Of a stretch of DNA of 64,000 nucleotides, positions 29,866 through 49,574 are shown piece by piece (position 1 is the first letter of the stretch; each line of letters begins with the position of its first letter). Under the pieces are notes generated by a model. It did no database searches. It was not told the origin of the DNA and worked only from the letters and a program-made list of their open reading frames with translations. The DNA is taken from assembly GCA_003194525.1 (NCBI GenBank), contig NBIV01000201.1:62001-126000 (forward strand), written 5' to 3'. Made by a program: the position numbers and the translations under genes. This DNA comes from Gracilariopsis chorda. Lineage: Eukaryota > Rhodophyta > Florideophyceae > Gracilariales > Gracilariaceae.

Positions 29866-30444
29866 CTACATGTGTAACCTAATTCTGATGCCTGTGAACA
29901 CCGTCAATCCCTTCACGAAAGCGGGTGTAGCGCCATAGCTCTGCGGGATATCAGCTGCCGTTCCCAAAAGATGCTGTGACCTACTGGCACCAGCCACCCG
30001 CGCATTATGCGCTGGGTCGCGATAACCTGACCAGATTGTGAGCGACTTGCACCCATGGCTTCCCTCAGCTTCTCCAGCCCAAACAGCAGCTCGCGCACAA
30101 CTCGAATATCGCCATTGCCTCTGGATTTGAACTCCGAATGCTTGACATGCTGGCTGGCATAGCTGCCCTCTGCGGCGCATCTGGCGATTTCGGGGCGGGT
30201 CAGGGGCCCGGCATCGCCGTCAGTGGTTAATAGCTTGAAGGCCCACCCAGTTTGAAATCTTTTGACGGCAGCAGTGGTGGCGGGTCCGTAGTCGCCGTCA
30301 ATAATGAGAGGCCATCCGATCGTTCGTAGGTCGGTTTGAAATTTGATGATGACGCTGCGGTCGGTAGGAATTGCTGACGTTGAGCTTGAGGTGCATGAGG
30401 GCAAGGAGGGATGAGATGACAACCGAGGACGATAGTGAAGCCAT
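29866..30444 (-). pseudogene. Bacterial-type PG-binding plus peptidase M15 protein, frameshifted
   Basis: Three minus-strand frames make up one secreted peptidoglycan enzyme. An ATG at 30444 opens a hydrophobic, signal-peptide-like leader. A shifted frame (30422-30060) carries a PG-binding-1 domain (IIKFQTDLRTIGWPLIIDGD, YGPATTAAVKRFQ) and the linker EFKSRGNGDIRVVRELL..LEKLREAMG. Another shift brings the peptidase M15_3 motif WSGYRDPAHNARVAGASR, SQHLLGTAADI, with the zinc-binding His and Asp of S-x-H-x-x-G-x-A-x-D. The C-terminal His-bearing strand is not recognisable. Such D-Ala-D-Ala carboxypeptidases cut bacterial cell wall, so this looks like a laterally acquired gene that has decayed. 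An intron cannot explain both frame changes. Confidence 0.75.
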
Positions 30445-31893: not shown

Positions 31894-32586
31894 ATGCATC
31901 CACCATCTGCCGAGGGGCACGTGAAGGCCACAGATGTCTTTGTCTCATGCAGTTTCGGCAAGCAGGCAGTCACCAAGATGTCCACGAAGGATAAGCAAAA
32001 AGTCTATGCTCAATGGTCCGAAACATACGAGCAGGACAGTCTTGACAATGACTATGTCGCATGGCCAATCTGCGCTGAAAAGATCTTCGCCGTAATGTCC
32101 AACATGGCCTCCGAAGAAAACATATCGCGGCCCTTCAAACTTGTGGATGTCGGTTGTGGTACAGGATACCTGGGTACCCTCGTTTCGGATCGACTCAAAT
32201 CCACCGATATCTCAGCGTTCTTAGTAGGTGTCGACTTCAGTAGCGAAATGCTGGAAAAAGCTCGCAACAAGAAGTGTTATGACAAGCTGATTGTGGCAGA
32301 CATAAACCATCCTTTGCCAACAGAGGCCCGTGCTATGGATATCGCAGTTGCCATGGGTGTATTTGTTGAGGGCCATTGTGATGCTTCTGCACTTCCGAAT
32401 GTGCTTGCCTGTCTGCGTAAGAACGGAATCGCCCTCATTACTATTCGATCAACTACTATTGTCAAGTTTGAGCAAGAGTACCTTCAGGCTGTAGCGGATT
32501 CGAAATGCGAAATTGTCCAACGCGATGAGCAGATGTATTTCGGTCCGGCAAAGGCAGAATATTGGACAGTGAGGAAAACTGTGTGA
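31894..32586 (+). CDS. METTL27-like SAM-dependent methyltransferase
   Basis: 230 codons from the ATG at 31894; the frame is open upstream to 31654 but that part is unlike the family, and a second ATG at 31978 (MSTKDKQKVYAQWSETYEQD) begins the conserved domain and could be the real start. The class I Rossmann fold shows motif I LVDVGCGTGYLG, the acidic loop VGVDFSSEMLEKAR, motif II DKLIVADINHPLP, and post-motif VFVEGHCDASALP. The order AQWSETYEQD, WPICAEKI and VGCGTGYLG is that of METTL27/WBSCR27-type proteins, cytosolic methyltransferases of unknown substrate. No intron is needed. Stop TGA at 32584. Confidence 0.82.
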   Translation: MHPPSAEGHVKATDVFVSCSFGKQAVTKMSTKDKQKVYAQWSETYEQDSLDNDYVAWPICAEKIFAVMSNMASEENISRPFKLVDVGCGTGYLGTLVSDRLKSTDISAFLVGVDFSSEMLEKARNKKCYDKLIVADINHPLPTEARAMDIAVAMGVFVEGHCDASALPNVLACLRKNGIALITIRSTTIVKFEQEYLQAVADSKCEIVQRDEQMYFGPAKAEYWTVRKTV

Positions 32587-33375
32587 GTTCTTTTTGACAC
32601 TTTGCACTCATCGTCTCTAGCCGAGTGTTTCGAGTGTGTTATTATTAGTTGTACGCACTGCAAAAGCTTTTGCAGCACTACGGCAGAAAAGTATTTCTTT
32701 ACTGCTACTCGAGCTGCGGTAAAAGTGAAAATATGCTCGATATTGATGCATACACAAGCATCGTATATATATAGACGTTAGCCATCCGTCCTTCACTCTG
32801 TTTTTTTATGCTGTGCCGGACATCAAAGAATGTGCGGAATCTATTTTCAAAGCGCTGAACCCTTTTGAACCCAACTGCTTATGTATACAAATAGTTTACA
32901 TAAGCAGAGCACTTCATTGGCCACATTGATTTCACAATCGTAAGGAAATGGCCTTCAGCCTGCCAAGTGGCTTAAGCTCTTGCTTATGGCTACAAATTGT
33001 ACACATAAGCAAAGAATGACAATTGGTCATTTGCTGACCTTTACCCTAATCTCCGTCAATGGTCTTTGTTCTCATGGCACACAATTCGGGCTTGGTAGCC
33101 GTTCAGTCGCTAAATCGACAGGTGTAGCGATTTTGGGGAAAGGAGTATATCAAACTTCGCCTATCTTGGTAACCATCCGCTCTATTGCCTTCAAGAGCCA
33201 CTCAATTTCAAGACAGAAAGCTATAGAATAGATAACCGGAACATGAAACGCGTAATCAGTTTACTCGCCACGAAAACGGTTAAACAAACAACCAGCTGTA
33301 ACGGCTCAAAAAGCCAGCTTACTCAAATTTGGCAAGAAATATGCGCTTGCTGAGAGACTTGACCGTTCGCTGCAG
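32587..33375. other. Intergenic with a duplicated palindrome
   Basis: Holds two related stem-loops: GCTTATGTA/TACATAAGC (32877-32905, 11-nt loop) and GCTTATG/CATAAGC (32982-33010). Each is followed by a similar CATTGGCCA or AATTGGTCA stretch. No gene recognised. Confidence 0.5.
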
Positions 33376-34260
33376 TCACCAGTCCACCTCCTCTTCGCTG
33401 TCTGGTGGCGCAGTACCCGCAACACGACCCCGGTGCGTACTGCGCTTTTCCGCGCCAGCCGCCCGCGATTTTGCCTTGCTTATGTTCAGCCTTGCTCGGC
33501 GACTGTGCGTCACACGTTCCAGTTGAATACTGCGGTCAGGTGCTAGTTCGATAGGTCGCTGCAAATCCATATCTGGTTCTCTATACGCCACTGCACGTTT
33601 GCGTGCCTTTTCCTTCTTATGTTTCTCCCGCAATTGTTGCATTCGCTTATTCAAACCATCTAATACCACTTGAGATGTTATTTGACAACTAGCCGTTGTT
33701 TTAACACGAATGTGACCACATTCTTCCACAATTCCGTCATTTACCAACGTACGTTGCTTCCGTGAAAACTGTTCCAGCAGTTCTTCGACTGACACAACAT
33801 CCTCTCCCGCATTCTTTGAATCATTTAAATGCTTCTCCAACGGCGCAAAATTGGATTTCAGCAACTCAAAATCCCAGATTCCAGTGCTATGAAAACCGGA
33901 GCGGATACTCACAACAGTGTGGGAGCTTATATAGGCATTACTGATGCACTAGGCGACATCAAAGGCGTTCATTTTTGCTTTCTGTCTCGCGGCTTTATGC
34001 AGCTCGTTCTGCAAACATGACTTGTATGCGCTGAACACGCCTACATCAATTGGATGCGTGATATGAGATGTGTGTGCCAGCAGAGCGATCACCACCACAT
34101 CGTTGTTCTTGAAAAGTTTCAAAGTTTTTTACTGTATATGCGACCCATAGCCGTCATACCCGTGTTTCTTCGCTTCCAAAAATTATAGGGTCGCGCAATA
34201 AATATTTGAGTCTCTGCCGTGACTTCGTTACATGGCCGGTCCTTGTGACTCATTTGAAAG
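33376..34260 (-). pseudogene. Pogo/CENP-B-type DDE transposase C-terminal relic
   Basis: On the minus strand a frame beginning near 34160 reads YDGYGSHIQ, stop, then LFKNNDVVVIALLAHTSHIT, HPIDVGVFSAYKSCLQNEL, a second stop, and STGIWDFELLKSNFAPLEKHL. These match the DDE_1 pattern DGHGSH..NNIxxxxLPPHxSHxxQPLDVGVF..K, then the TGIxPxN region. The terminal 178-codon ORF (33376-33912) is a basic C-terminal tail. At least two stops break it and the N-terminal DNA-binding part is missing. Confidence 0.7.
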
Positions 34261-35110
34261 GTTGTAGTAGAACCTTTGAAAAGATTCAATCATTGTACAG
34301 CGTGTATCACGTTGACGTAATGCTGCCCAGGATATTCAGATGACATCCTCGTCTTACACAATGCTACTGGTCAATTCTTTGACTTACCGACGTACTAAAC
34401 ACTGTTTGGTAGAACCACAATTTTGTTACGTCAGCTTGACAGTGTCAAGTTGACGCACCAAATTTTGTTGACACAACCCATTGTACAGCGCTGGCGTTTC
34501 CTGTCGTCTTCACCTTCACCTTCATCATGAAGTCGTCCCTCCCACTCTGATGCTCCTCGGCAAGACCCCTTCCCCATCATAGCCTTCCCTATCCCGCTCG
34601 CCATCTCAGTCGTCCTCTTTGCTGCACTTCTTCCACTCCGCCGTCTCACATCAGCCTCTTTCTTTGCACTGGCCCTTCAATTGATCTTCCGCCTCTTCCC
34701 CATCTTCTTTGTCTTCCTGCTCGTCCTCAACCCATTCCCTCTGCGTCAAGTCCAATTTTTTCACCCACTCTGCCGTTCTAACCTCCCCTCCTTGCGCCTC
34801 TTCCAAAAACTCCCATGAAACACTCCCATCGTTCGTGATGATTCTCCAACCAGGACAAAAAGCGCGAAAAAAAGTCTTATCTTCGTTTTACGTTTTAAGA
34901 AGTTGGATGCTTAGTATCTCAGGCCATTCGTCAAGCACGATGACGAGGCATATATAGTTCTTTTCTAACGCGGAATAGGTATTGCTTTAGAGCAGTCTCC
35001 CAACTGGAAGGAAAGCTTCTCAGAGGAGAAAGTTCTGAGGGATGTTTTTGATCTTCGTGATGCAAATGGTGCCATGAACGAACATTAAGAGATTTCTTCT
35101 TGTTCTGCAG
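34261..35110. other. Intergenic with one long palindrome and possible exon
   Basis: A near-perfect palindrome with 13-base arms (one mismatch) spans 34429-34455. A minus frame around 34640-34880 encodes an acidic tail (WVEDEQEDKEDGEEAEDQ) without known family. A plus frame ending at 35068 (SEEKVLRDVFDLRDAN) could splice by a 42-bp GT..AG intron to the ORF at 35111, but lacks an ATG. Confidence 0.3.
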
Positions 35111-35352
35111 GATCCGAAAGTAAACAGGATGACGCACAGAACAGTCATAGTGAGGACAATGAACCGCAGAAGACTCACCATGAGCATGATCATGAACGCA
35201 TGGAAGTTGAATCTGCGCAGCGTAAACACAGTGAAAAAGAGGACGTCTTATCCCCTATATCCCCAGATGTGGACATTTTGCGGGATACAAAGCTCAATAA
35301 AAGAGAAGCGGGCGTGAGTCTCGACCAAAGCAGCTCAGATCAGAATAAAATC
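35111..35352 (+). pseudogene. Unidentified ORF, 5' part, split by retrotransposon
   Basis: An open frame rich in Glu, His, Asp and Lys (SHSEDNEPQKTHHEHDHE) runs from a possible splice acceptor (CTGCAG, 35105-35110) up to the 10.4-kb element. It resumes in the same frame at 45754, so the two pieces are one ORF interrupted by the insertion. No domain recognised. The composition suggests a nuclear or otherwise disordered acidic protein. Confidence 0.45.
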
Positions 35353-36309
35353 TGTAGAGCAAAACCCGGAAGCGGGAAGTACCCTCAAGGGGTTCGAGAC
35401 CTTGCTCCCTATGGGATGGTGTCTCAGTTGAGAGAGCCCTCTGCGCCACGTAAAGGCTGGCTTGTAAGGCCAACGTGGTTCTGGCTATACCTGCAGAGGT
35501 TCGGGAATGGCCCAGAAAAAGGGTAAACTCCAGGGACGGATGGTACACACGTGATTTTATAATGACACGATATCCTGTGAAGGAAAGCAAAAGGAAAAAG
35601 GGAAAACCCAAGAGAACCGGCGACGGGGCGTGCAACACGCGGCAACAGACCGGGCGACGGGGCAAACCAAAATAAAGAACGAATCACAAACGGGAATGTG
35701 GTAAACACAACGACTAAGAACCCAATACTGGGGCGGAATCCAAGACTGACAGTGGAACAAATAACCAATACCGAACACGGTGATACTGTAGCAGTAGTGA
35801 CGCCTGAATGTTCCCAAGGGGATGGTAGACGGAATCCACTCGTGGATACTCTCCGCGAGGAGTCATAATTCCTAGGAGAGCCTTTCTTACCAGAGCCTTA
35901 CTCTTCAAAGAGTATATCTCGAAAGAGGACCAAGGTTACCATTTACTGGTGGTGCTGACGGCGAAGCCGTGATTACCTAAGTAGGTTTGCACCACAATAA
36001 ACTAAATAAATTAACTAATTTGGTGCACACCTCTTGAGGTCCATACACGTGGAGTTCCCACTTTCTGGGCCACAAGTGGCGATAACCATAGAATTAAATA
36101 TCCAAAATTGGAATCGAAATTACCACACGCGTACAGCGTACCATCTGTCACCAGAATGCCACTATTAATACCTGTCCAGGTCCCTCAAGTGCCACCTCAT
36201 CGCTAACCCGCGAGGGATCAACTCATAAATGAGGTATCGAACCAATCCACCAGTGGATACTCCTATGAATAGGAACAACTGCCAACCGACGGGAAAGCGT
36301 TGCTCCACA
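35353..36309 (-). repeat. 3' LTR of the 10.4-kb element
   Basis: 957 bp, on the plus strand TGTAGAGCAA... to ...TTGCTCCACA. Pairs with 44799-45753. Contains the same hairpin series, e.g. TACTCT-TCAA-AGAGTA where the other LTR has a GCAA loop. Confidence 0.93.
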
Positions 36310-36394
36310 TCTCCCCCTCCCTAAGCCGGGAAAGCCCCACCGCGACGTGGGATTTCACGTGACGCGAAAGCGTATATATAGTACGACTCCCATC

Positions 36395-36916
36395 ATGGGC
36401 TCACCGGACATCTCGGTTCAGCACACGCACCAACCGCCTTCCTCGTCTTCCGAGCATCTTCCGCCTCCGGATATACACACATCTGCCAACGCACACTCTC
36501 GTGTGTCAGGAATGCAGCCGTTCCATACCAATCCCTTGGGGAGTTCCTCCTCACAAGCCCCTCTCACTGACGACCCTCCTGGGTTTCCTTCCAATCCTCT
36601 CCCGACACCGGGTGGTTCTGTAGCTCCACAGTTGGATGTCGCCGCCGTCGCTTGGAATTCCGAGCAGGCGATGCCGTTGACAGCGAACCCGCGAGGGTGG
36701 ATTTCCAAAGAATCGTTTGACGCGAGAAGTCCATCAATGGATCCGCTCATCTTTTCCCGGGCCCCATGGCTCCATCCCAAGGCGGTGAGGGATGACGAAC
36801 TCATCGATTTCTATGTGGAGGATGGCATGCTCCCTGGCGGGATTCCGCGTGCCCTTGTAGACTCCGGGGACTGGCGAGCCCGCATTGCGGTTGATCCTCA
36901 AGACATTGTGAATTAG
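36395..36916 (+). CDS. Antisense 173-aa ORF inside the 10.4-kb element
   Basis: An open frame on the strand opposite to gag-pol, between the 3' LTR and the chromodomain. From ATG 36395 it encodes a Ser/Pro-rich N-terminal half and a more ordered C-terminal part (ISKESFDARSPSMDPLIFSR, DDELIDFYVEDGMLPGGIPR). A TATATATA box (36373-36380) lies only 15 bp upstream, too close for a usual transcript start, so a later ATG (near 36512) would fit better if the box is used. No known family. It could be an antisense accessory gene or a chance frame. Confidence 0.35.
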   Translation: MGSPDISVQHTHQPPSSSSEHLPPPDIHTSANAHSRVSGMQPFHTNPLGSSSSQAPLTDDPPGFPSNPLPTPGGSVAPQLDVAAVAWNSEQAMPLTANPRGWISKESFDARSPSMDPLIFSRAPWLHPKAVRDDELIDFYVEDGMLPGGIPRALVDSGDWRARIAVDPQDIVN

Positions 36917-37183
36917 TACAACCAGCTAGTGGTAATTCTTCGCTTCTTCTTCTTCTCTTCTGAGATCTTCTTTCCACTTCATTCTTCCTATTCCAGGATC
37001 CAATTTCTTCAGTATCCCTGCTTCTGTAACCGTTTCCGGTATCTCGCTCTGAACCGTTTCCGGTTTGTTGTTCTGAACCATTTCCGGTATTCCCCTTCTT
37101 GTTTCCCCTTCCAACATGGGTCGCACTCGCGAGAGTCTCCCCAAGAACGACCATCGTGGTCACGTAGTGTTTCCGGATTCGGA

Positions 37184-37483
37184 TTAGCCAACTAGTGCTT
37201 CATCCAAATTTGGAGGTAGAGCCAACCGCATCCGTCGGTGATAGGATATTATCTTAGACCTCGGGAGGTGCTTGACTGGCTCCAAAGTATCCTCCTCGGG
37301 AGAGTATCCGTACCAATGGATTTGATAAAACCACTCACCCTCCTGGGTAACTTCATGACGCACAATGCGTTCAACCACGAACTCCTTGTGGTAGAAATCC
37401 AGTTTGGAACTTTCCCGTGCCATCTCTGGCGAAGGGAGAGGCAATAGAACCACTGTGGTTAGCTTCAGAGTGCCTGGCGGCAA
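37184..37483 (-). CDS. Chromodomain at the end of pol, 10.4-kb element
   Basis: In a 99-codon minus frame, FVVERIVRHEVTQEGEWFYQ, IHWYGYSPEEDTLEPVKHLP is a canonical chromodomain (aromatic cage Y/W/W-type positions, WxGYxxxxxTLEP). It would be the C-terminal targeting module of the integrase; the frame is separated from the integrase core by stops and a low-conservation linker (37560-38700). Confidence 0.8.
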   Translation of the reverse strand: MPPGTLKLTTVVLLPLPSPEMARESSKLDFYHKEFVVERIVRHEVTQEGEWFYQIHWYGYSPEEDTLEPVKHLPRSKIISYHRRMRLALPPNLDEALVG

Positions 37484-38709
37484 TATTCCGGTCTCGGAAG
37501 CGCGTCGCTCACCACGGTGATTATGCAGTATCCGTCGTGACGGAGAATGCGTAATTTCCGTTAGCGGAGAGCAAACGTCACCCGAATGGGTTCACTCGAA
37601 AGGTCTCGCTTTTCTGAGTCCAGGAAGTATTGTTTCTTCCGTGACGGAGTCCTAACCGACGAACGGTAGCTTTGGCAATTCAGGTGATGAACCGCTTCAG
37701 CGGGAAGACCGTTCTGACGGTGGTGCACCTCTTTGACACTCCCTATGCAAGGGCGGCGGACCGCCGGTCCACGGGAAATTTTCCGAAAAATCCGATTGGC
37801 CGGAAGGTTCGCTTGCGCGCCACATCTCTGGCACGTGCCCATCTAGGGTTTGTCCGTTACCGGCAGGGAGTCACGGAGCGCCATTCATTTCGCAAGCGCG
37901 AGCGCACGCCACCGCGTTATGACGTAATGCACACCCTGAGCGAGTCCTTCACGGTCCAATTGTCCACCAATCATGGTTTCGCATCTCCTTCGGAGTTCTC
38001 TTACTCCCAGTTCCAGACGTCGTTCCAAGCTGGATCCCCGTCCTCGCCATCGAGTTCTCCCGCGTGCGGGTCGGCACACACTACCCGATTCGGGTCTTTG
38101 GAGACCGTCTTCTTCGGTGACGCAGTAGCACAATCGCGAATGCGAGAAGTATCACTTGACAGGTTACCAGATTGGTTTGTTTCGTCGTTCTGTTCATCAT
38201 CCTTTTCAGGACTGTTTTCATCGCTTCTGACGTTATTCCTTACCGGTTCTGCGGTTCCATCGCGTGATGCGCGAGTTTGCAGCGAATTCCCAGTAGTGAC
38301 AACTGTCTCTTCGGAAGGAGTGTTACCATTCGTGGTTGCAGCGGGCGACGCCGAAACCGAAACGGTATTCTCCTCCCCCTCCTTAGGCAGGGCCAGGGGT
38401 CTGCTGACAACCTCCGGGTGTTACTCTCTGAGAGTCGTTGTGCCGAACCCGTTCGGGGTGTAGCGGGTCAGCATTTCCATCGTTGGAAGCGGTAGGCGGC
38501 AGATCAGTTAGTCCACGATCCGGGTGCGGAAGAATTGCCGGACGCGGCTGTCCATTACCAGAAGGCTGGTAAACCGTGTCAGCATTCTTTGAAAGGGTTG
38601 TAGGTGAGTTCAACACTTCTAGATTTGGATTGAGTGCCCGAGTAACGCGGTCGCGTGATATCCTCTCGTGTTGAGAATTAATGTCCAACACGACAGTGTC
38701 CTGTGCGAC

Positions 38710-39711
38710 TCATACCACACGGTAGGGTCCATCCACGATTGGAGAAAGCTTATGGTGACCTTCCTTCTGAGGATTGTAGTATTCCTTTCGAAGGAATACG
38801 AACTCGTTCGCCCGAATTTCCGGTAAAGGTCTCTGAATCTTCTGATCGAAGTTACGCTTGTAAGCGTTTTGCGCCTTTGCCATAGCTTTCCGTGCAACCG
38901 GAACCATCTCCTTTAGCCATCCTTTCCAGGAGTCGCGATACAAACCCGGCGAAGGGTAAGTTGCCAGTGTTGGCTGTGCCTCGATAGAAACCGGCGGCGG
39001 TATACGCGACAGTACCAGTTCGAATGGTGATAAAGACGTAACCCTATGCACTTGGGTATTGTACGCATATGTGATTGCGTCTGTGTACAGGTCCCAATCC
39101 TTGGGGTGATCCGCAACATATGACCGTAATGCGTTAAGCATCGTTCGGTTAAACCTTTCCACCTGACCATTACCCTGAGGGTGGTACGTTGTTACAAACA
39201 GATTCCTTATATCCAGGATACGGCAAACGTCTTGAAAGAACTTCGACGTGAATTGAGGTCCGTTATCGGAAAGCACCTGTACGGGTGGTCCATAAACGAA
39301 TACTCAATGGGTGACGAACGCCTTCGCAACAATACTTGCCGTAATCCGCTTAAGCGGAACTGTCCGAACCAATTTGGAGAATCGGTCTGTGATTACCAAT
39401 AGGTACCGATTCCCGCAGGGAGTCCTGATCAGTTCTCCGAGGAGATCAATGGCCACGAATTCCAACGGTGCCCTGGCAGGGAATAACGTTAACTCTTTAG
39501 AGTATTTGCGTAGCTTAACGTCATTCTTCGCACATCCTGTACAGGAACGGCGCACCGCGTAGCAGTCGAATGCCATAGCTGGCCAGTAGAAATCCCTTCT
39601 CAATGTGAGATACAGTTTTCTTCCACCAGGATGAGCGCCAACCTTCACATAATGTGACAAGTGGAGAATTCGCTGCTGTAGCGAGTGAGGCACCACGATT
39701 TGCGGGTTCAA
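38710..39711 (-). CDS. Integrase of the 10.4-kb element
   Basis: Two minus frames. 39711-39304 has the HHCC zinc finger (HYVKVGAHPGGRKLY.. CTGC) and the first catalytic Asp in FVAIDLLGEL. 39276-38710 has SDNGPQFTSKFF with the second Asp and, 35 residues on, Glu in GNGQVERFNR. So D,D-35-E is intact. A frameshift near 39290 separates the two parts. Integrase inserts the cDNA into chromatin. Confidence 0.88.
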
Positions 39712-39828
39712 GTTAACAAACCTGACAAGGTAGCCTTGATCGGTAACCGAAAACGGTATCTGACATCCTCCATTGAGGCGAGCACGGATCTGAGTACAGA
39801 ACGGATCTGTCTGTTGCTCACGTATTAA

Positions 39829-40362
39829 CTACTCGGGAGTAATGGGTATAAAAGAACCAATAGGTGGTTCTACATCTCTCGTGACGAGAATTTCGTCACA
39901 TATATCATCCAAAAGGATTTCGGCTCCGTCATCCAAGTCTTCCACCATAAAACATGGTATGTCCAAGTCCGTAGTCAGCAGTGCTTCAGAATTGGTTCCC
40001 AAACGGGATAACGCATCCACCTGAGTGTTCAGGGTACCCTTCCTGTACAGGATATCGAAATCAAATTCCGACAGTCGGAGACGCCAACGCATCAACCGGC
40101 CCGACGGTTCGGTAATTTCTATAAGCCAACGGAGGCAGGAATGGTCCGTATGTACGGTAAAGTGAACACCCATAAAATAGGGTCGTAGAGTAGAGAGTGC
40201 CCACACAACGGCGAGACACTCCTTCTCCAAGACGGAATAATTACGTTCATGCACGTTTAGAGATCGCGACCAAAAACCCGATGGGGTGTCGTTCACCATC
40301 TTCATTGGTTTGAAACAACGCACAACCAATTTGGTTAGCACTAGCGTCAGTATCGACTTCAT
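39829..40362 (-). CDS. RNase H of the 10.4-kb element
   Basis: 177-codon minus frame, continuing from the RT frame after a shift near 40300. It shows SLNVHERNYSVLEKECLAVV (catalytic Glu), FTVHTDHSCLRWL (catalytic Asp) and LNTQVDALSR. Domain order RT, RNase H, then integrase is that of Ty3/gypsy. Confidence 0.85.
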   Translation of the reverse strand: MKSILTLVLTKLVVRCFKPMKMVNDTPSGFWSRSLNVHERNYSVLEKECLAVVWALSTLRPYFMGVHFTVHTDHSCLRWLIEITEPSGRLMRWRLRLSEFDFDILYRKGTLNTQVDALSRLGTNSEALLTTDLDIPCFMVEDLDDGAEILLDDICDEILVTRDVEPPIGSFIPITPE

Positions 40363-42094
40363 ATGGAAGACCCAGAGTGGGTAATGCCAAACTCGGTGGG
40401 GACGTCACGGCGTTCACCAATTCCGTGAAAGCGGACGACTCCACGTCCCCGAAAGGGTCCAGTTTGACTGGTTGACCTTTGCTCAGTAACCTGTTCAAAG
40501 GTGTAGCAATCTCCGCAAAGTTCGGAACGAAACGACGGTACACGTTACACAGTCCTAGAAAGGAACGCAGCTCAGTCTGAGTAGTTGGGTGCTTCGCTTC
40601 CTTCAAGGAATTGACTCTCACTTGATCGAGCAAAAGCTTTCCGGGACGGATGATATGACCCAGATATTTCACCGATTCGGTAAAGAATTCACACTTCTTG
40701 AGTTTCAGAGTTATACCTGCGTGGCGCAGTACCTTCATTACTTCCGGAACGTGGGATAAGTGCTCATCCAAGTTATTGGAGAAAACGATTATATCGTCGA
40801 GGTAAACAAGACACGTTTTCCATTTGAATGGAGCTAGCAGTATGTCGATTGCCCTTTCAAAGGTAGCAGGAGCGTTCGTAAGCCCGAAAAGCATTCTCCG
40901 AAATCGGAACAATCCTTGATGACATACGAAAGCCGGCTTATCTCGGTCCTCTTTCCTGATAGGAACTTGCTAATAACCCCAATTCGCATCGAGGGCAGTG
41001 AACACAGTAGCATCCCCAAGGGAGTCGATGTATTCATCCATTCTTGGAATAGGATAAACATCCTTAACCGTCACCGAATTGAGGCGCCGGTAATCGAAAC
41101 AAAAGCGCCACGAACCATTTGGTTTCGGAACTAGCACAACTGGCGATGCCCAAGCAGACTGGGTTGGTTCAATAACGCCATCGCGTATCATCTTCTCAAC
41201 TTGAGATTTCTCTTCTTCCCGAGCTTTCGGTCCAGCCCTGTAAGGGTGTTGTGAAATCGGCCGAGTATTCGGAAGGAGATCAATTCGATGCTCTGTAATT
41301 CCTATCCTTCCCAAGGAACCGTCCCACATGGGAGTGAACTCTGACAGCATATACCTGAGCTTCTCCCGATGGGATTCTGGGACATGAGTCAAGTCAAATT
41401 TCGCTAATTCCTCAACAGGATCTTTCTGTTCTGTACCAGGTGGTAGCTGACCTTCTGAGGTTTCGAGGGGTGCAGTACCCGAATTCACCTCGCGAGGTTG
41501 TTGTTCATCAGCTTCACCGAATTGAGCGGTTTCCTCCCCCTCCTTAGGGTCTGTTATCCCAAGAACCTCAGCGATAGGTAACTTAGTCGGGACGACCGCT
41601 TGCGGGTGTGGAAGAACTGAACCCAGTACTTGGTTTTTGACTAACCACTGAGTGATTTTGCCAAAGTTAGCAACCAGTACCCGGAAGGGTTTATCCAGTT
41701 CTACGGAAACAACGCCATTCGCTAGAGCGAGTTGTCGTGTCTCGTAGAGAGAAGCCAGGGGCTGAACAAAGTGCGTAGTATGCTGCTTGGTTAGGACTGC
41801 TACCCACACCTGGGTTTCCGGCGCAATGGCGATTGATTTCGCAACGCGAAGCTTCGTTGATACCGTATCCATGTTTGGAACTTCCTGAGCAACCGGTAAC
41901 GGTACACGCTTCCGCGTGACGGACGTCAAAGGCTTCCGGACAATCGGAACAGTAGAACTGTTTTCCAGTTCAACAGTCTTCCTCCGAGGTCGGATTGCTT
42001 CGATGAATCGATCACAAAAAATCACACCCGAGTATAACCGGTGCGGCGAGTCCTTCGCAAACAATAAAGTCCAATTGAACCAAGATGGTACCAA
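40247..42094 (-). CDS. Reverse transcriptase of the 10.4-kb element, one nonsense codon
   Basis: Minus frame 42094-40970 includes the RT fingers: VEKMIRDGVIEPTQSAWASP, WRFCFDYRRLNSVTVKDVYP and ATVFTALDANWGY, where the frame meets TAG. The usual residue there is Trp (GYWQxP), so TGG to TAG explains it. The same frame continues QVPIRKEDRDKPAFV into 40912-40247 with FGLTNAPATFERAID, the YLDD active site (VYLDDIIVFSNN) and LRSFLGLCNVYRRFV. Apart from the single stop the RT is complete. Confidence 0.9.
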
Positions 42095-42479
42095 TCCCTA
42101 CACAAAGGAAAACGTTACCAACCGTGCGCAACGGGTTGTTGTTCGCATCTGCAATATCCAAACCTGGACCATGACGAATACGTTCCCGAAGAGCGGGCGG
42201 TAAGAGATCCAAATGGATAAGATTTGGCGCAGCTCCTGTGTCCAGGACAGACAACTGTCGAACCATAAACTGGTTGGAAAGGCCGTAATCAGCATAAACT
42301 TTATAGTTTGGCTTGGCCATAACCATGACTCTATTCGGAATACGGAGATTACGGGACCGTATCCACGGGCAAAGTAAAACACCAAAGTGTTCAGAGTCCG
42401 CGTCGGAAGTAGCCGCTTTCCTTGAAAGGATCTTGACCACTGATGGGGAGCGAAGCTGTAACGCCTCGGACGTCTTCAA
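42012..42479 (-). CDS. Aspartic protease of the 10.4-kb element
   Basis: 155-codon minus frame with SVLDTGAAPNLIHLDLLP (D-T-G active site) and the hydrophobic end VILGCDFL. It overlaps the RT frame at 42012-42094 in another phase. Cleaves Gag-Pol. Confidence 0.85.
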   Translation of the reverse strand: MKTSEALQLRSPSVVKILSRKAATSDADSEHFGVLLCPWIRSRNLRIPNRVMVMAKPNYKVYADYGLSNQFMVRQLSVLDTGAAPNLIHLDLLPPALRERIRHGPGLDIADANNNPLRTVGNVFLCVGIGTILVQLDFIVCEGLAAPVILGCDFL

Positions 42480-42871
42480 CTTCGGCTCAGAAGACGCCCC
42501 TCCCGTAGGGGAAACTCCCGAGATTAGGTTTTCGAGGCGGGCTCTACCGATTGCGGTGCAACACTCCCTTCGAGGGAAACAGACTGTTCCCCGTTCGCGG
42601 GCATAAAACCAGAGACCTGTGAACCAAGGTGAGCTCGAAGCAACTTCTGTTCCTCATAGGATCGACTCGGCACTCGAGCTTTCTGTTCGGCAGTGAATGC
42701 TTCGTACTGCGCGATTATTTTCGAACCCTCCCGAAGTGGGAATGTACAGTCTGGTGCTTTATGACCTGAGAGCTAACATAAAAAGCAAATAAACTGTTCC
42801 GGGTTCGGATTTAGACGCGTTTCCACACGGTGTGGATGAAGGTGATGCGGTGCAGTGTCCCTCCATCCCGG

Positions 42872-44580
42872 TCAGGAAAAACGAGTAGCTTGATTCGCGT
42901 GAGCGAGTGGAACTGCCGGTACCCTGCGAGGGTTGACATACAAGCTAGGATAATCTTCCGTTGACGGATTCGAAGTCGACGGCAACACAGACGTACCGAA
43001 CGACTCGGGATTGCTTCCAAGAAAGTGGATGTGGTCCTCTACACCATGACTGGTATTACCCTGTGCCAGGGACAAAGACGAATCCGAACCATCGGCAATG
43101 AGCGCTCTCGATGTCCGAACTCTCGGATTCCGCCTAGCCCGAAAGGTATCACCTTCGGCTTGAGCGTAGTGGACCAGGTCCATGTACTTCGCTCTGCGAT
43201 TGTACTCCCGATATCGGGATACCAAAGCCCTGATTGAAGGGTCCAAACCATCCACAAACATGGTACACGTTTCCTGATGGGAATGAACATTACCACATCC
43301 GTGAAACGCTTTATTCAAGCGGGTTGAATGTTCCGTTTCGGGCTCCGTCGGTCGTTGACGAGTGTCTCTCAAAGCCAGAATTGCTGCTTGAACCGCATTC
43401 GGTGTCGCGTATGACCTGAGAAGGTAGTGTACTGCTTCCAGCCAACACGTGAATCCTCCTTCCGAGGCCCTCGAGGATCCGCGGACGGATTGAAATTGGT
43501 CTTCTGCAGAACCCTTTAGAAAGTAGGGTAAAGTCAAATAAGCTTGCACTTCACTCATACCAAGTATATCCGCTTCGCGGACGAAGCTCGCAAGGAAATC
43601 AAGAACAAATATTGGGTCGTCGCTTTTGAACCCCCTTTTGTACAGGGTAATGCTGAGGCGCTTAATAAAGTCCTTGACCTTGCCCGTACCACGGGATGAA
43701 CGTTCTGTAGACGTGTTCACCAACCGATAATACCGGTACGACAACAACTTCCGATAGAGCGGACTCGTAGGCTTCATCTCCTTGATTCTCAAGAGCTTCT
43801 GACCCTTCACACGGGTATGTACGTCCCTCTGTGTGGGTTGAGTAGCCCCAGATTGGGTAGCACGCGGTTCGTGTTGTTTTTCATCCTTCTCCGGCGAATT
43901 GGGATCCGAAGAAGAACTCGAACGCGAGTCATCAGAATCTGAACCAGACGAATCCTCTTGAGGATGAACTTCCTTTTTGGAACTGCGGTTATTCCGTTCA
44001 ACGGAGCGGTGTCCAGACGTCTCCAAACGATAGGATTTCGCCAATTTGGCCTCGAATTCCGCGTCCAGACAGAATATCTCTTCGAGATTGCTCAAACGGG
44101 CTTCGAAACGATCCGCTCGCTCGCGGAATTCTTCCACAAACGTGTGGTAACCCTGAATGAAAACCCCAGGGGTACCCAAACTTTCCAAAATGGAGTTGAC
44201 ATCCCGTCTCAGGGAACGAATATCCCCGAAACATCCCGCAACTGGGCGTCATCCACCTTACGCCGCAGAGCGGCAACTTCCTGCAGGAGGTCGACGTGTG
44301 TCACATTGGCAATTTCCACACGTGACTCCAACCTCCGGAACTGGGAATTAACAAACCGAATTCGGTCAGCTGCAGAGAGCGTTTCCACAATTGGAGGTTT
44401 AGAAACTGTAACAACCTCTTGAGGTACAGACGCAGCGGAGGGTGCTCTCCGAAGATCCGGATCGATCTCAATATCGTCCCGGTCGTCGAGAACGGACATC
44501 CTCGACCTGGGTGCGGCAGGTGGGCCTGACCCAGCGGGGCGAGTAGAACCATTCCGAGGACCCGGAGCCTTCGGTGCCAT
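42872..44580 (-). CDS. Gag of the 10.4-kb element, one frameshift
   Basis: Start at ATG 44580 (MAPKAPGPRNGS). The N-terminal frame has a coiled coil (RFVNSQFRRLESRVEIANVT) and stops at 44209. The next frame (44188 to 42872) continues the coiled coil without gap (DVNSILESLGTPGVF), so one indel near 44225 splits gag. The second part carries an acidic Ser-rich stretch and the retrotransposon gag capsid domain (SEVQAYLTLPYFLKGSAEDQ, LNKAFHGCGNV). No clear CCHC knuckle was seen. Confidence 0.8.
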
Positions 44581-44798
44581 ACTGTAACTGACAACCGCTA
44601 TCGGTAAGCGATATACGTAAATCGATCTCAAGACTTCCGAAGAACGGATAAACACAAAAATACTTCACAGAAAAGTCACAAACTCAAGTGAGTATCCAGA
44701 CCATTGAGTGGTTTGACAATTGAGAACCCAGCAATGGGAACCAACCGACAAACAACTCGAAAGAGTGCAATCCCAGATTCTAGGTCGGAAGACCACTT

Positions 44799-45753
44799 GT
44801 AGAGCAAAACCCGGAAGCGGGAAGTACCCTAAAGGTGTTCGAGACCTCGCTATCTATGGGATGGTGTCTCAGTTGAGAGAGCCCTCTGCAACACGTAAAG
44901 GCTGGCTTGTAAGACCAACGTGGTTCTGGCTATACCTGCAGAGGATCGGGAATGGCCCATAAAAAGGGTAAACTCCAGGAACTGATGGTACACACGTGAG
45001 TGTATAATGACACGATATCCTGTGAAGGAAAGCAAAAGGAAAAGGTAAAACCCAAGAGAACCGCCGACGGGGCGTGCAACACGCGGCAACAGACCCGGCG
45101 ACTGGGCGAACCAAAATAAAGAACGAATCCCATACGGGAATGTGGTAAACACCACGACGAAAAACCCAATACTGGGGCGGAATCCAAGACTGACAGTGGA
45201 ACAAATAACCAATACCGAACACGGTGATACTGTAGCAGTAGTGACGCCTGAATGTTCCCAAGGGGATGGTAGACGGAATCCACTCGTGGATACTCTCCGC
45301 GAGGAGTCGTAATCCCTACGAGGAGCTTTCTTACCAGAGCCTTACTCTGCAAAGAGTATATCTCGAAAGAGGACCAAGGTTACCATTTACTGGTGGTGCT
45401 GACGGCGAAGCCGTGATTGCCTAAGTAGGTTTGCACCACAATAAACTAAATAAATTAACTAATTTGGTGCACACCTCTTGAGATCCATACACGTGGAGTT
45501 CCCACTTTCTGGGCTACAAGTGGCGATAACCATAGAATTAAATATCCAAAATTGGAACCGAAATTACCACACGCGTACAGCGTACCATCTGTCACCAGAA
45601 TGCCACTAGTAATACCTGTCCAGGTCCCTCAAGTGCCACCTCATCGCTATCCCGCGAGGGATCAACTCATAAATGAGGTATCGAACCAATCCACCAGTGG
45701 ATACTCCTATGAATAGGAACAACTGCCAACCGACGGGAAAACGTTGCTCCACA
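44799..45753 (-). repeat. 5' LTR of the 10.4-kb element
   Basis: 955 bp. In 45256-45429 eight perfect short inverted repeats occur in 174 bp, e.g. ATCCAC-TC-GTGGAT (45278-45291), CTCC-GCGA-GGAG (45295-45306), TACTCT-GCAA-AGAGTA (45343-45358) and ACGGC-GAA-GCCGT (45402-45414). Minus-strand ORFs of 114-140 codons across both LTRs are by-products of low stop density. Confidence 0.93.
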
Positions 45754-45981
45754 AGATCAAGCCCAGGAAGGGTGTGGTTAACACTGAGGATCTCATTCAT
45801 GATGCTAGCATTGAAAATTGTGACGATCCATCGCCTGCACTTTTCAAAACGTTTGGTGAAAGGATTAGAGAGGAAGGAACCAAAGCTATAAGAACAAAGA
45901 TTCCAAACTATGCCGAAGATGTCAGCGATTTTGACGATGTCCAGCTCCCCCAAAATGCGCAAGTTCAGTATAAGTCCACAT
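45754..45981 (+). pseudogene. Unidentified ORF, 3' part, split by retrotransposon
   Basis: Continues the frame of 35111-35352 after the element and one target-site copy: KPRKGVVNTEDLIHDASIEN, later FKTFGERIREEGTKAIR, and ends with TAG at 45979-45981. No family recognised. Confidence 0.45.
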
Positions 45982-46073
45982 AGATTTACGAACCCCTCAC
46001 CAACTACCACATAAATAAAGCTCTAGAGGTAAGAATATGTATCCAACAACAACACGCCATTAAAGTGCTGCTT

Positions 46074-48413
46074 CTATGCTTCGAGAATGGCTTCCATCTC
46101 CACTGTGCCCAAGAGTGGCAAAGAATCATCGTTGATTTCCTCCCAATCCAACTCCCCTTCTAATTCTTCACCGTCCGATAGCTCCTCACCTGCATGAATA
46201 ATAACCTCATCAGTCCCATCCATTCCCCCTGTAGTCGCAGGAGCTCCGAGCTGCTTCTGATCTGTGTTGATGAGGTGTTTTGTACCCTGACAAGGGGCGG
46301 TAGTTGAGTTAAAAATTGCGTTGTTAAATGCACAGAAGACCATCTTCTTCACCTTTTCCGGGTGGAGACGGTTCCGAATTGACGTTCGGATCCGCTTCTG
46401 AGCGCTGAAGCTTCGCTCTACAGATGAAGAGGACGGACTCACGCAAAGTATCCGCAATGCAAACGTTCGCAATAAAGACTTCTCCTTTTGTATCCAGTAA
46501 ATGACTGGCATGTTCCCATAAGCCAGCAAAAGGGGATGTTGACTGCCATGATCCATTTCCATGTTCCATTCCATACGCGTAAAAGAAAATTCTTCAAACA
46601 AGTTCTGCATAGCACCATCCACTCCACCGGCGCTCGGAAGCTTTGCAGATGGTGGAAAAGCATCCGAAGATATAAACGTGCGCATCTGATTAAGAATGTG
46701 CACATTATATTCTGAAATGTCTTCGCGAGCACTACTTATATCCAAAGCATATGCCACATAGTTCAGTGGCGTCAATAACGGAACTTTTCGCCGGGTAACC
46801 ACCATCCGGTCCTCGAATACTTGCAACATGTCGCCCTTTCTTTCCGGGGTGAAAAAGGGGGTCGCTGGCAGCTCTCCAAGCTGCTGGCGGAGTCGCAGGG
46901 TAACCGGTAGCACCTCAGAAATGAAGCTTTCTTCATTATCAAAGAACCTTAAATACTGTCTCACAACCCTCAAAACATGATAAACATCAAGACACTTTTC
47001 GAATAGAGTGTCATCGCCAACGGCTGTCTCGGAAAACATCCTTCTTTCGTTATTTCGAGAATCAAACAGGTTCAAAGCAAAGTCCTGGCAACCCACTAGT
47101 CTCCTGTACACAGTATGGCTGCGAACAAAAGATTGAATCATTCCCTCAGAGCTCGCAAACCTAGTAGTCGCCATCTTCACCGGCAATATGGCAGTTCGCG
47201 GTGGGAGCAAGCGCGAACATTTGTCCAACTCCTTTGTCTTTGCTTCGTACCCATTGCTTCGTAGTGTTGCGTTGTACTCCTCTTTCAATTATTTGAACCG
47301 AAAGTAAAGTTTCGGACGGTTTCTCAGGTCCGTAACAAGGGTTGATATCACATCCAGTACATCCTTAATCCACGCTAACGCTCCGATGTCCTGCATTAAA
47401 AGGTTGGCGAAATGTGTCTGATCATGGCAACTAATCAGCCAATTGAATCGACCCACTAGCTTCGCCTTCGCAACCTCACACGCCCTTGTATCGTCACTTG
47501 TGACCCCGGGTATATTCTTCATATCCCCGAAATCCACCATTGTGTCGGCGACAATGTTTGCATACAACGAAGCATCACATTTCTCTGATCCAGTATATTT
47601 GGATCGGAGAAAGAAAGTCTTTCTCGTACGGTTTATTCCAGTGATGGACAGTAGAACATTGACAACGGTTGCTTGCTGCTCGTCCTTCCACCCATCAAAA
47701 ATCAACGTTCCAAAGCTGTGCTGTAGACCTGCGTTGACAGAACCTTTAGTCCGGTTTACGAACTGCTGATAGTAAGCATCAAGGTTATTGGAGGCCATTC
47801 TCTTAGCGCTCGGAATATCTTCCGCGTACAGAGGATTCAAGACTTTCAACAGAAGGTAAAGCTCGTTTTTGCCCTGTTCTCTACTGAGAATAGAAAAAGG
47901 AAGCATTTGATTGACGATGAGAGATGTTAGTAGTTCTCGTATTTTCGAGCGTTTTTCGAACGAATCTAAACTATCCGTGCTAACCTCACCCGCTTCGCTC
48001 TTCTCCGATTTCACAAACGTCTTGCGGTGATTCAGAACGAAGCTGGTGCTGCGTTTCCGGTATTTTATGTTCGGGGTCTCGGGAACGCCGTATACTGTTG
48101 CAGAGCTTCCAAGTTTCCGATAATGATCTGCGTAGTGCTCATTCTCTAAGAGCAAGCGTTCGTTTACCTTCTTCGCCGTTTTGCTGCAATCCAAGACGTG
48201 TTTTCCTAGCTGCGTTGCATTCGGGGTAGAAGCGTAAGACATATACGCACAAGCCTTGCAAGATATTTGCAACCGAACTCCAGAACCGGAGGAATTTGAT
48301 GTGTATTCTTGGACAAAGCACTCTGTAATCCACCAACTTTTCTTGCGTCCCCTACGTTTTTTCGAACTGTGGGAAGAATTGTCCGATGTCAGCGCAGCTT
48401 CTTGTGTCGACAT
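46074..48413 (-). pseudogene. hAT-family transposase with one in-frame stop
   Basis: One 779-codon frame from ATG 48413 broken only by a TAA at 47289-47291 (FRFK-stop-LKEEYN). Residues about 20-90 hold a BED-type zinc finger (QISCKACAYMS...LGKHVLDC). A DUF659-like hAT core follows (SFGTLIFDGWKDEQQATVVN, GVTSDDTRACEVAKAKLVGR, with catalytic-type Asp residues). The C-terminus has the hAT dimerisation motif (SSSSVERSFSAQKRIRTSIR, NRLHPEKV). hAT transposases cut and paste DNA as dimers. Readthrough or a recent nonsense mutation are both possible. Confidence 0.88.
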
Positions 48414-48714
48414 GGCTGAACGTAGGGGATGATAGGCAAGAGCGCAACGTGAAGCGGAATTGAAAAGATAGAAAACTCAAATACAACGCTTGAGTGGCTA
48501 GAGAGTAGAAAGCAAACCGTAGAAGGACACAGTTCTTATTAGGGAACTGGGTGTGAGGGAGAGCAGCTGACTGAAAATGAGAGGAGGAAGAACTGGCGGA
48601 TTGGGTTGCAGTATGCATTTTTGCATGAGTTCTTGAGGTAAATGGTTACCTCGTTCCATAATCTACACCAGCGCAGCCGCGCAGTGGTACACGTGCGGCG
48701 CGCACAGGGCACTG
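48414..48714 (-). mobile_element. hAT 5' flank and terminal inverted repeat candidate
   Basis: Reading inward on the minus strand from 48714, CAGTGCCCTGTGCGCGCCGC fits the hAT terminal consensus CAGxGxCCTG. The outer neighbour is a 45-bp palindrome (48714-48758). The matching repeat at the low-coordinate end was not found in 45754-46073, so that end is diverged or deleted. Confidence 0.5.
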
Positions 48715-48884
48715 AAATTTGTGGTTATGTTTGGAGTCCAAATACAACCACAAATTTCAATTTTTTGGATTGAGTTGAATATTACGCGCCATTTTGTTGG
48801 AAGTGGGAGCAGGTTTCTTCTCTCTGTCGGTTTGCCAAGTTGGCATAGCTTTCCCAACGATAGCTAAATCTTCTTCTTCTTGTC

Positions 48885-49562
48885 ATGCTGAGTTTTGATG
48901 ACATTGAGGATACATGCGAAGGGCTACCGACCTACATGGATACCAATACGACTACTAGACGTACAAGCCATCGGAATGATGGGCAGATTGGTGAGGTATA
49001 TCACCCAGAGCATGCCAAGGTCAGCCTGGTAATCATTCCAGATTTATGTCACACTGAAGAAGGCTTGGCAAAACCTAAAGCAAAGAACAACGGAAGACGT
49101 CAACAATTGATCCCACAAAAGTTAGGAAGCAGGCAGGAAAACAGAACTACCAGAGAAGTTTTGGGCAGCATTTACGTAAAAACCTCTTCCTTGATCGAAT
49201 CAGAACACGTTATTACCACTCCAATCAACCACAGTGACGCATTTGCTAAGGAAACTATGGATACAGCGAGCACCTCCGATGAGTACCAAGAACTGCTTTA
49301 CAGCGGAGAAGAATACGAGAAACGATACACACCCGAGGCATCTAGCGAAGAAACCATTGGTATCTGGAGTAGAAACAAGAGGGTCCAGGTCTTTCAGATC
49401 AATGAAAACAACCGTAGTTCAGACCCTTTTCATGAGCAAATGTTCTGCCATCGCCCAGGAATGAATGACTTCTCGCCCTCTGATGCATTCTTGAAATTCA
49501 GCGTAGATACCGAAGCCTCCGTTCTAACCGCTTCGAGGGAAACTGGAGACCTACGAGACTAG
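48885..49562 (+). CDS. Unrecognised 225-aa ORF
   Basis: ATG 48885 opens a frame for an acidic, Ser/Thr-rich product, starting MLSFDDIEDTCEGLPTYMDT. No domain, signal or membrane segment recognised. After its stop, coding-like sequence continues in another frame (ASPFDPPSRDFYTTEC and GEDCIHKNCHYSEPCLRGMI, about 49575-49755), then in 49756-50055, so it is probably the head of a larger frameshifted gene. Confidence 0.4.
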   Translation: MLSFDDIEDTCEGLPTYMDTNTTTRRTSHRNDGQIGEVYHPEHAKVSLVIIPDLCHTEEGLAKPKAKNNGRRQQLIPQKLGSRQENRTTREVLGSIYVKTSSLIESEHVITTPINHSDAFAKETMDTASTSDEYQELLYSGEEYEKRYTPEASSEETIGIWSRNKRVQVFQINENNRSSDPFHEQMFCHRPGMNDFSPSDAFLKFSVDTEASVLTASRETGDLRD

Positions 49563-49574
49563 AAGCGAGCTAAC

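What the first reader, a model, noticed from the sequence alone, without database searches (positions are those of the whole stretch)
35353..45753. A 10.4-kb gypsy element saturated with tiny perfect hairpins
Seen directly: short inverted repeats with 4-7 bp arms and loops of 1-6 nt recur about every 20 bp in the LTRs. In 45256-45429 I count eight in 174 bp (45256-45266, 45278-45291, 45295-45306, 45343-45358, 45382-45394, 45402-45414, 45420-45429, plus the CTC-GAAA-GAG at 45362-45371). In 44683-44795, just inside the 5' LTR, five follow one another. Many loops on the plus strand are GNRA-like (GCGA, GCAA, GGAA, GAAA). The tandem gypsy pair at 15939-25702 lacks this texture. Possible meanings are a structured RNA genome that resists silencing or aids packaging, protein-binding sites on cruciform DNA, or a mutational process that rewrites DNA into palindromes.
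Basis: seen in the sequence. Interest (0 to 1): 0.9.

Follow-up and report, generated by a model that had tools for sequence, protein, structure and literature searches.

The report
Retrotransposon clade saturated with mini-hairpins
A group of related jumping genes in a red seaweed carries hundreds of tiny hairpins of four or five base pairs, many with a family-specific sequence and apparently kept by selection while the elements spread, for a purpose not yet known.

Summary
The excess lies in 4-5-bp stems with short loops. Stems have family-preferred sequences: [T/A]CCN in the window family, CCGN and other CCNN in the L031 family. All 17 loci of this clade compared in the genome (Gracilariopsis chorda, a red alga) show it, in all codon phases where tested. 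Positions turn over without significant compensatory covariation. Private changes in young copies break hairpins at the random rate and seldom make them; changes fixed in the L031 lineage break 2 and make 10 of 46. That argues for selection during propagation rather than a palindrome-writing mutation process. G.U pairs are mostly not enriched. Best reading: dispersed recognition hairpins on a single-stranded replication intermediate, perhaps bound by Gag; function and strand are unproven. Eight searches of an open-access library showed no such texture in the papers listed.

The parts
35353..45753 (-). Whole Ty3/gypsy element, coding on the minus strand; stems (arm >=4, loop 3-5) cover 28% of its bases against 8-11% in three control elements
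44798..45753 (-). 5' LTR (956 bp); 920 of 955 aligned bases identical to the other LTR; hairpin-dense
35353..36309 (-). 3' LTR (957 bp); hairpin-dense
44776..44795 (-). Candidate primer binding site (sense TGGTCTTCCGACCTAGAATC), two bases inside the 5' LTR; it overlaps the hairpin at 44783-44794
   Evidence: read from the sequence printed; hairpin; tRNA not identified
36310..36322 (-). Candidate polypurine tract (sense AGGGAGGGGGAGA) abutting the 3' LTR
   Evidence: read from the sequence printed
35348..35352 (.). Left flank AAATC, candidate target-site duplication; right flank 45754-45758 is AGATC (4 of 5 equal)
   Evidence: read from the sequence printed
42872..44248 (-). gag-like open frame (458 aa), no Pfam match
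38710..42653 (-). pol region broken into at least six frames (42012-42653, 40970-42097, 40247-40969, 39829-40404, 39304-39828, 38710-39303)
   Evidence: domains identified by Pfam only in the relatives L031 and L032
45256..45429 (-).
44682..44794 (-). Six successive hairpins at the inner edge of the 5' LTR

Best explanation
The element belongs to a clade of Ty3/gypsy retrotransposons that carry 260-310 non-overlapping minimal hairpins per 9.5-10.4 kb (three elements), well over twice the chance number where that was computed; about half to two thirds have CC in the 5' arm. Typical form: a 4-bp stem, often with C on the 5' side near its base, and a 3-5-nt loop of almost any sequence. Shown: the excess, its geometry, stem preferences that differ between families, the turnover of positions, and losses and gains that differ between private and fixed changes. 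Inferred: the hairpins act as many weak, interchangeable recognition sites on a single-stranded replication intermediate (genomic RNA, or minus-strand cDNA), bound by an element-encoded protein, most likely Gag/nucleocapsid, helping the element to select, condense or assemble its own genome. Density and stem identity would be under selection, not individual positions.
For: Geometry: 4-bp stem with 4-nt loop 102 vs 24.4 (same pattern in L031 and L032). Numbers: 291, 309 and 260 non-overlapping hairpins in the window element, L031 and L032; 323 vs 125.6 expected in the window element with loops 3-6; CC stems 199 of 359, 231 of 373, 145 of 308. CC at stem positions 2-3, 143 vs 8.6. C-G at the outer pair 8.1x but G-C 1.4x in L031, L059 and L061 pooled. 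Stem tetramer preferences group by clade. Synonymous-codon shuffles keep the excess: L031 pol 216 vs 75+-8, L032 pol 142 vs 59+-7, all codon phases; coding and noncoding alike. In L031, CC stems avoid extension beyond 4 bp (23/205 vs 0.284 expected, p 4e-9) and flanking mismatches are strand-asymmetric (A.A 49, T.T 15). Selection: outgroup-polarised changes fixed in the L031 lineage break 2 and make 10 of 46; private changes break 79 and make 25 of 315 (p 0.001 and 0.007). A comparison in the window family points the same way: 15 hairpins with the ancestral base per 106 fixed changes, 253 per 863 private ones.
Against: No direct evidence of binding or of Gag; gag gave no Pfam match. No significant compensatory covariation pooled (280/679 vs control 1555/4062), although some pairs within the L031 group exceed control (17/28 vs 33/85; 27/44 vs 90/210). 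Avoidance of extension is not seen in the window family (46/192 vs 0.264), L017, L020 or L032, and for stems of any sequence L031 extends more than expected (150/452 vs 0.257). Stem preference is weak in L020, L043, L056 and L062. Strand cues conflict: A-rich flanks favour the sense strand in L031, L055 and L018, while GNRA loops and C.A near-misses favour the antisense strand. Changes assigned to L059 break 9 and make 11 of 54, and shared polymorphisms alone are not significant once polarised (23 and 14 of 116). Only 26-36% of hairpins exceed a predicted pair probability of 0.5 in sense RNA.
Confidence: 0.42

Rival explanations
1. Generic structure as armour: dense local folding of the genomic RNA blocks small RNAs, nucleases or dsRNA sensors (a genome-scale ordered RNA structure effect). 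No dedicated binding protein is needed.
For: Fold energy below shuffles in L031 on both strands (mean z -1.95 and -2.36); density is kept while positions turn over. In the group of L043, L055-L058, L060 and L062 the outer T.G pair is enriched 1.81, as wobble-tolerant RNA would allow.
Against: Does not predict family-preferred stem sequence, the C-over-G bias at the outer pair or the concentration in 4-5-bp stems, and most positions and families show no G.U enrichment. In the window family the fold-energy shift is small (z -0.78 sense) and no larger than in one of three control elements (-0.90; the others -0.21 and 0.43).
Confidence: 0.2
2. DNA-level hairpins on the single-stranded minus-strand cDNA: they protect or organise the cDNA before plus-strand synthesis, bound by nucleocapsid, integrase or a host single-strand binding protein.
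For: Watson-Crick pairs are the strongly enriched ones. Sense C.A near-misses beside a CC core, which are T.G on the minus strand, exceed their mirror: 2.77 vs 1.22 in coding and 2.33 vs 1.06 in noncoding pieces. Loops that are GNRA on the antisense strand: 47 vs 22.9 expected, summed over nine elements; sense strand 28 vs 23.8.
Against: A.A flanks in L031, L055 and L018 and A-rich linkers in L031 point to the sense strand. The window family is strand-symmetric at the flanks. With any sequence allowed in the other three pairs the C.A excess is only about 1.3, and in L043 sense G.T (1.33) exceeds A.C (1.16).
Confidence: 0.17
3. A templated mutation process (reverse transcriptase fold-back) rewrites sequence into short perfect palindromes.
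For: Would explain the preference for Watson-Crick pairs, indifference to codon phase, equal density in coding and noncoding parts, and lack of covariation. Fixed changes could carry such a bias, if it acts only in the reverse-transcription cycle.
Against: Private changes make hairpins no more often than the other bases would (51 vs 62.5 in 541) and break them at the random rate (90 of 315; random 0.283). None of 55 private changes in the youngest copies makes one. Of 31 local clusters of changes 2 add a hairpin. It does not predict the concentration in 4-5-bp stems.
Confidence: 0.08
4. Palindromic double-stranded DNA sites for a dimeric protein or a host chromatin factor.
For: In the window family the flanks are symmetric under strand exchange.
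Against: The pairs next to the CC/GG core are complementary in 104 and 102 of 146 CC-N6-GG sites, with all four Watson-Crick pairs enriched at the inner position, which a protein reading intact duplex can hardly demand; flanks are strand-asymmetric in L031.
Confidence: 0.06
5. Chance, or base and dinucleotide composition.
For: None found.
Against: z 15-22 for the whole element and its internal part with arm >=4 or >=5 against dinucleotide shuffles; synonymous-codon shuffles; shuffles within 1-2-kb steps.
Confidence: 0.01

Closest known systems
Dispersed packaging signals of RNA viruses (MS2 and others; review PMC6281560, passages seen)
   Same: Many degenerate stem-loops with a shared recognition feature scattered through the genome.
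   Different: The MS2 feature lies in the apical loop and a 5' bulge. Here the preference lies in the stem and loops are nearly random; there are some 260-310 hairpins per element; the carrier is an LTR retrotransposon; binding is not shown.
Genome-scale ordered RNA structure (GORS) of RNA viruses (recalled; one search gave a listing only)
   Same: Genome-wide folding excess without conserved positions.
   Different: GORS is measured as fold energy. Here the texture is a minimal 4-5-bp hairpin with family-preferred stems, and G.U pairs are mostly not enriched.
Yeast Ty3 genomic RNA structure and dimerisation palindromes (PMC11381356, passages seen)
   Same: Ty3/gypsy element; one short palindrome at the 5' end was found necessary for dimerisation in vitro.
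   Different: In the passages seen, six palindromes at the 5' end were considered and one was functional; no element-wide texture is mentioned there.
Ty3/gypsy chromoviruses
   Same: LTRs, RT, RNase H, integrase; the relative L031 carries a C-terminal chromodomain.
   Different: The hairpin texture is no feature of that group that I recall.

Membership tests
Ty3/gypsy LTR retrotransposon | Two LTRs with TG..CA ends, primer binding site and polypurine tract | tested here: met
   LTRs 35353-36309 and 44798-45753 with TGTAGAG..CTCCACA ends (plus strand); candidate PBS 44776-44795 and PPT 36310-36322 read by eye
Ty3/gypsy LTR retrotransposon | Domain order RT - RNase H - integrase | tested here: met
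   Met in the relatives L031 and L032 by Pfam; the window copy's broken frames were not scanned, only seen to match these proteins in sequence
Chromovirus | Chromodomain at the integrase C terminus | tested here: inconclusive
   Present in L031 (PF00385, 1.3e-09), not found in the L032 open frame; the 3' part of the window copy was not tested
Dispersed packaging signals | Many degenerate stem-loops with a shared recognition motif in the genome | tested here: met
   Stem-loops and shared stem preference; that the preference is a recognition motif is inferred
Dispersed packaging signals | Motif bound by the capsid protein and needed for assembly | not testable with these tools
   needs binding and assembly assays
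Genome-scale ordered RNA structure | Folding energy of the genomic strand below shuffled controls along the genome | tested here: inconclusive
   Mean z, sense and antisense: L031 -1.95, -2.36; window element -0.78, -0.96; L032 -1.09, -0.55; controls -0.90, -0.06 (15939), -0.21, 0.21 (6908), 0.43, 0.00 (copia L037)
Conserved RNA secondary structure | Compensatory covariation at homologous pairs | tested here: not met
   280/679 = 0.41 vs control 1555/4062 = 0.38, pooled over 18 overlapping comparisons; single comparisons vary both ways
Templated palindrome mutation | New mutations create perfect hairpins, often in clusters | tested here: not met

The most novel reading that the evidence does not exclude
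A retrotransposon clade writes a family-specific structural address code, a 4-bp stem preference that diverges along with the element, about every 30-37 bases through its whole genome, under the protein code. It would let an element-encoded protein recognise its own single-stranded RNA or cDNA wholesale: self-recognition by genome-wide motif saturation rather than by one packaging site.
Probability: 0.35. Interest if true: 0.92.

Novelty: new variant of a known kind. Interest (0 to 1): 0.82.

Why it matters
If the hairpins are self-recognition sites, they show how a retroelement can mark its entire genome rather than one site, and how such a mark can sit under a protein code and drift between families. 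Stem motif against Gag sequence across families then becomes a natural experiment in the co-evolution of a nucleic-acid code with its reader. If they are armour or cDNA structures, they bear on how retroelements escape silencing or handle single-stranded DNA in red algae. Either way the texture is easy to compute and can be sought in other genomes.

Tried and rejected
Chance and composition: rejected. GNRA tetraloops as the main feature: rejected; about twofold excess on the antisense strand, in a minority of loops. Masking of CC/GG from a deaminase: CC and GG are not depleted outside stems in four of five elements (rho 0.93-1.08 in the window element, L031, L032 and L054; 0.94 and 0.81 in L043). 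Compensatory covariation: an early hint in raw counts did not hold against a control when pooled. Regular spacing: gaps between hairpins have CV 0.89-0.95, close to random. Sense-strand wobble: not found overall, except outer T.G 1.81 in one group. My first within-family tests polarised shared variants by majority; mis-polarised sites could mimic their result, so I repeated them with an outgroup: the shared class lost significance, the fixed class showed the effect. A first alignment of L001-L030 mixed strands and was redone. The counts used loci in mixed orientation, harmless because perfect hairpins read alike on both strands. Relatives in viral contigs: none confirmed. Other red algae: no nucleotide collection of them is among the tools. 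Literature: eight searches, of which I saw listings and abstract starts, plus passages of PMC11381356 and PMC6281560.
Full report
WHAT WAS CHECKED. The finding says that the gypsy element at 35353-45753 is saturated with tiny perfect hairpins and that other gypsy elements in the window are not. I counted maximal perfect inverted repeats and compared them with dinucleotide-preserving shuffles. Arm >=4 and loop 3-6: 409 observed, 147.4+-15.0 expected (z 17.5); internal part 354 vs 130.4+-10.0 (z 22.5). The elements at 6908-12126 and 15939-25702 give z 1.2 and 1.6; 45760-64000 gives 0.2, 25703-35336 gives 2.7 and 1-6907 gives 6.1. In the last region lies a relic (4900-5328) 86.7% identical over 430 bases to one end of locus L031, which accounts for part of its excess.

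ANATOMY. The element is a minus-strand Ty3/gypsy retrotransposon: LTRs 35353-36309 and 44798-45753 (920 of 955 aligned bases identical), a candidate PBS at 44776-44795 and a candidate PPT at 36310-36322 (read from the sequence). The coding frames are broken in this copy. Relatives with long open frames show RT, RNase H, integrase and, in L031, a chromodomain; three gag-like frames give no Pfam match. The host is inferred to be the red alga Gracilariopsis chorda: the methyltransferase at 31978-32586 is 100% identical to a protein named BWQ96_10638 of that species. The assembly has 91.3 Mb in 1081 contigs.

THE TEXTURE IS A MOTIF. By stem and loop size the excess lies in 4-bp stems with loops of about 3-8 nt (4+4: 102 vs 24.4), 5-bp stems with loops 1-6 and 6-bp stems with loops 1-2; 3-bp stems show little excess and longer stems are few (similar in L031 and L032, where 6-bp stems with 3-nt loops are also somewhat raised). 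Within stems of the window family the second and third base of the 5' arm are CC 143 times against 8.6 expected, GG 9 against 8.9. CC-N6-GG occurs 146 times against 49; the pairs just inside and outside the core are complementary in 104 and 102 of 146. Complementarity of variable pairs suggests that a strand folds on itself; a protein reading intact duplex can hardly demand it. The window element, L031 and L032 hold 291, 309 and 260 non-overlapping hairpins; CC stems are 199 of 359, 231 of 373 and 145 of 308.

FAMILIES. I put 17 loci of the clade in one integrase tree (7 of 23 inner branches well supported; some loci are close copies of each other, such as L055, L057, L058 and L060). Sixteen have 1.8-3.1 times the hairpins of shuffles; for L031 the CC stems are 4.8-11.9 times expected in each of ten steps. 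Preferred stems differ: TCCN and ACCN in the window family; CCGN and other CCNN in L031, L059 and L061. Tetramer preferences correlate within clades (0.69-0.81 among L031, L059 and L061; 0.62 window family with L017) and weakly between them (0.22 window family with L031); no tetramer stands out in L020, L043, L056 or L062. Part of the similarity comes from homologous hairpins in close relatives, but the window family and L032, at 65% nucleotide identity with 20 of 118 hairpins sharing a column pair, still correlate at 0.53. Six copia loci, the best-scoring matches of one family search, show no excess (z -1.4 to 0.8). The gypsy element at 16057 (34% identity over 99 integrase residues) lacks the texture, as does the one at 6908, for which the integrase query gave no match; neither is in the tree.

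INDEPENDENT OF THE PROTEIN CODE. Keeping each protein and its codon usage but shuffling synonymous codons gives 75.4+-7.8 hairpins in L031 pol against 216 observed, 59.3+-7.2 against 142 in L032 pol, 21.8+-4.5 against 66 in L031 gag and 26.9+-4.1 against 63 in L032 gag. CC stems fall in all three codon phases. Stems with a CC/GG core are enriched 7.0-fold in coding and 6.5-fold in noncoding pieces.

STRAND AND CHEMISTRY. With three pairs of a 4-bp stem fixed as Watson-Crick, Watson-Crick pairs at the fourth are enriched 1.9- to 5.6-fold (except G-C in the two outer positions, 1.3 and 1.9, and A-T at position 2, 1.5), while sense G.T is 0.95-1.24 and sense A.C 0.87-1.34 (eight elements pooled). 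Against this, outer T.G is 1.81 in the group of L043 and L055-like loci and G.T is 1.33 in L043. By nearest-neighbour rules (recalled) an outer G.U next to C-G is about as stable in RNA as A-U, so simple RNA stability does not look like the whole criterion. The two strands are not equivalent, but cues conflict. In L031, flanking mismatches are A.A 49 and T.T 15, in all codon phases of pol and 5 to 0 in the 3' noncoding part, and linkers are A-rich: this suggests sense RNA. C.A near-misses beside a CC core (2.77 and 2.33 against 1.22 and 1.06 for the mirror) and antisense GNRA loops (47 vs 22.9 expected; sense 28 vs 23.8; nine elements, L059 close to L031) suggest the antisense strand. The window family has symmetric flanks (29 and 27), and L017 and L020 lean the other way (7 and 9; 1 and 3). 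Extension beyond 4 bp is avoided in CC stems of L031 (0.112 vs 0.284) and less surely in L054, L055, L043, L018 and L059, not in the window family, L017, L020 or L032. I do not resolve the strand.

MUTATION OR SELECTION. Eight copies of the window family carry 541 private changes: hairpin arms change at 0.0223 per site, sites outside hairpins at 0.0224, and the changes make hairpins no more often than the other bases would (51 vs 62.5). Twenty-two copies of the L031 family carry 315 private changes; 90 (0.286) break a hairpin and 16 (0.051) make one, against 0.283 and 0.095 for random changes. In the youngest copies (100% integrase identity) 55 private changes, 23 of them in one copy, break 14 and make none. 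So neither host mutation nor recent reverse transcription visibly writes hairpins. Changes that spread behave differently. Polarised with outgroups: private changes break 79 and make 25 of 315; 46 changes fixed in the L031 lineage break 2 and make 10 (p 0.001 and 0.007); 54 changes assigned to L059 break 9 and make 11; 116 shared polymorphisms break 23 and make 14 (p 0.31 and 0.19); shared and L031-fixed pooled, p 0.019 and 0.025. Dropped there: 39 sites without polarity, 30 derived in 21 of 22 copies, 193 fixed differences without polarity, and columns with a gap or three states. In the window family, hairpins present with the ancestral base number 15 per 106 fixed changes against 253 per 863 private ones, with the derived base 14 against 82 (216 differences unpolarised). 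This supports selection for hairpins during propagation; numbers are modest, and a bias confined to the reverse-transcription cycle is unlikely but not formally excluded.

NO FIXED POSITIONS. At 65% nucleotide identity 20 of 118 hairpins share a column pair, while each family keeps its density. Compensatory double changes are about as frequent in control pairs (0.38) as in hairpins (0.41), with higher values in some comparisons inside the L031 group. Density and stem type are kept, mostly not sites.

INTERPRETATION. Many interchangeable sites, family-preferred stems, nearly random loops, a narrow stem length, and presence in LTRs, UTRs and coding parts fit a recognition element on a single-stranded intermediate read by an element-encoded protein. 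Gag is the natural candidate, but that step is inference. Dispersed packaging signals of RNA viruses (PMC6281560, passages) work alike in principle; membership cannot be tested here. Generic anti-silencing structure and cDNA hairpins are live rivals.

LIMITS. One genome; no other red alga at hand; no structure probing; family loci were chosen by integrase similarity from capped lists, so their number is no census. Text searches listed no paper whose title or abstract start describes such a texture; the library is open access only.

Noticed in passing
window 4900-5328: Relic 86.7% identical over 430 bases to one end of locus L031; it accounts for part of the local rise of CC hairpins at 4001-6000.
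   Followed up: partly
window 30001-32000: Mild rise of CC hairpins (8 vs 3.2) without similarity to nine element sequences compared.
   Followed up: partly
L006-L009 (G000:C15:284055-302696): Four integrase copies exactly 6017 bases apart: apparently a tandem array of one member of this clade. Near-regular spacing of about 9.9 kb also occurs on C70 for the L031 family, and copia pairs lie 6044 bases apart on C468, C530 and C582.
   Followed up: no
L037 (copia): CG depleted (0.77) with TG and CA in excess (1.57, 1.36), as from methylated-cytosine decay; five hairpin-rich elements do not show CG depletion (1.02-1.15).
   Followed up: no
L031 (G000:C110) and relatives: A very young, abundant family: the 150 integrase copies listed (a capped list) are at least 95% identical, several with the 1875-aa frame intact.
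   Followed up: partly
window 46074-48476: Two adjacent open frames resembling a hAT-type transposase next to the element (name recalled, not tested).
   Followed up: no
window 37645-38463 (+): A 272-codon open frame antisense to the element in the region downstream of integrase.
   Followed up: no
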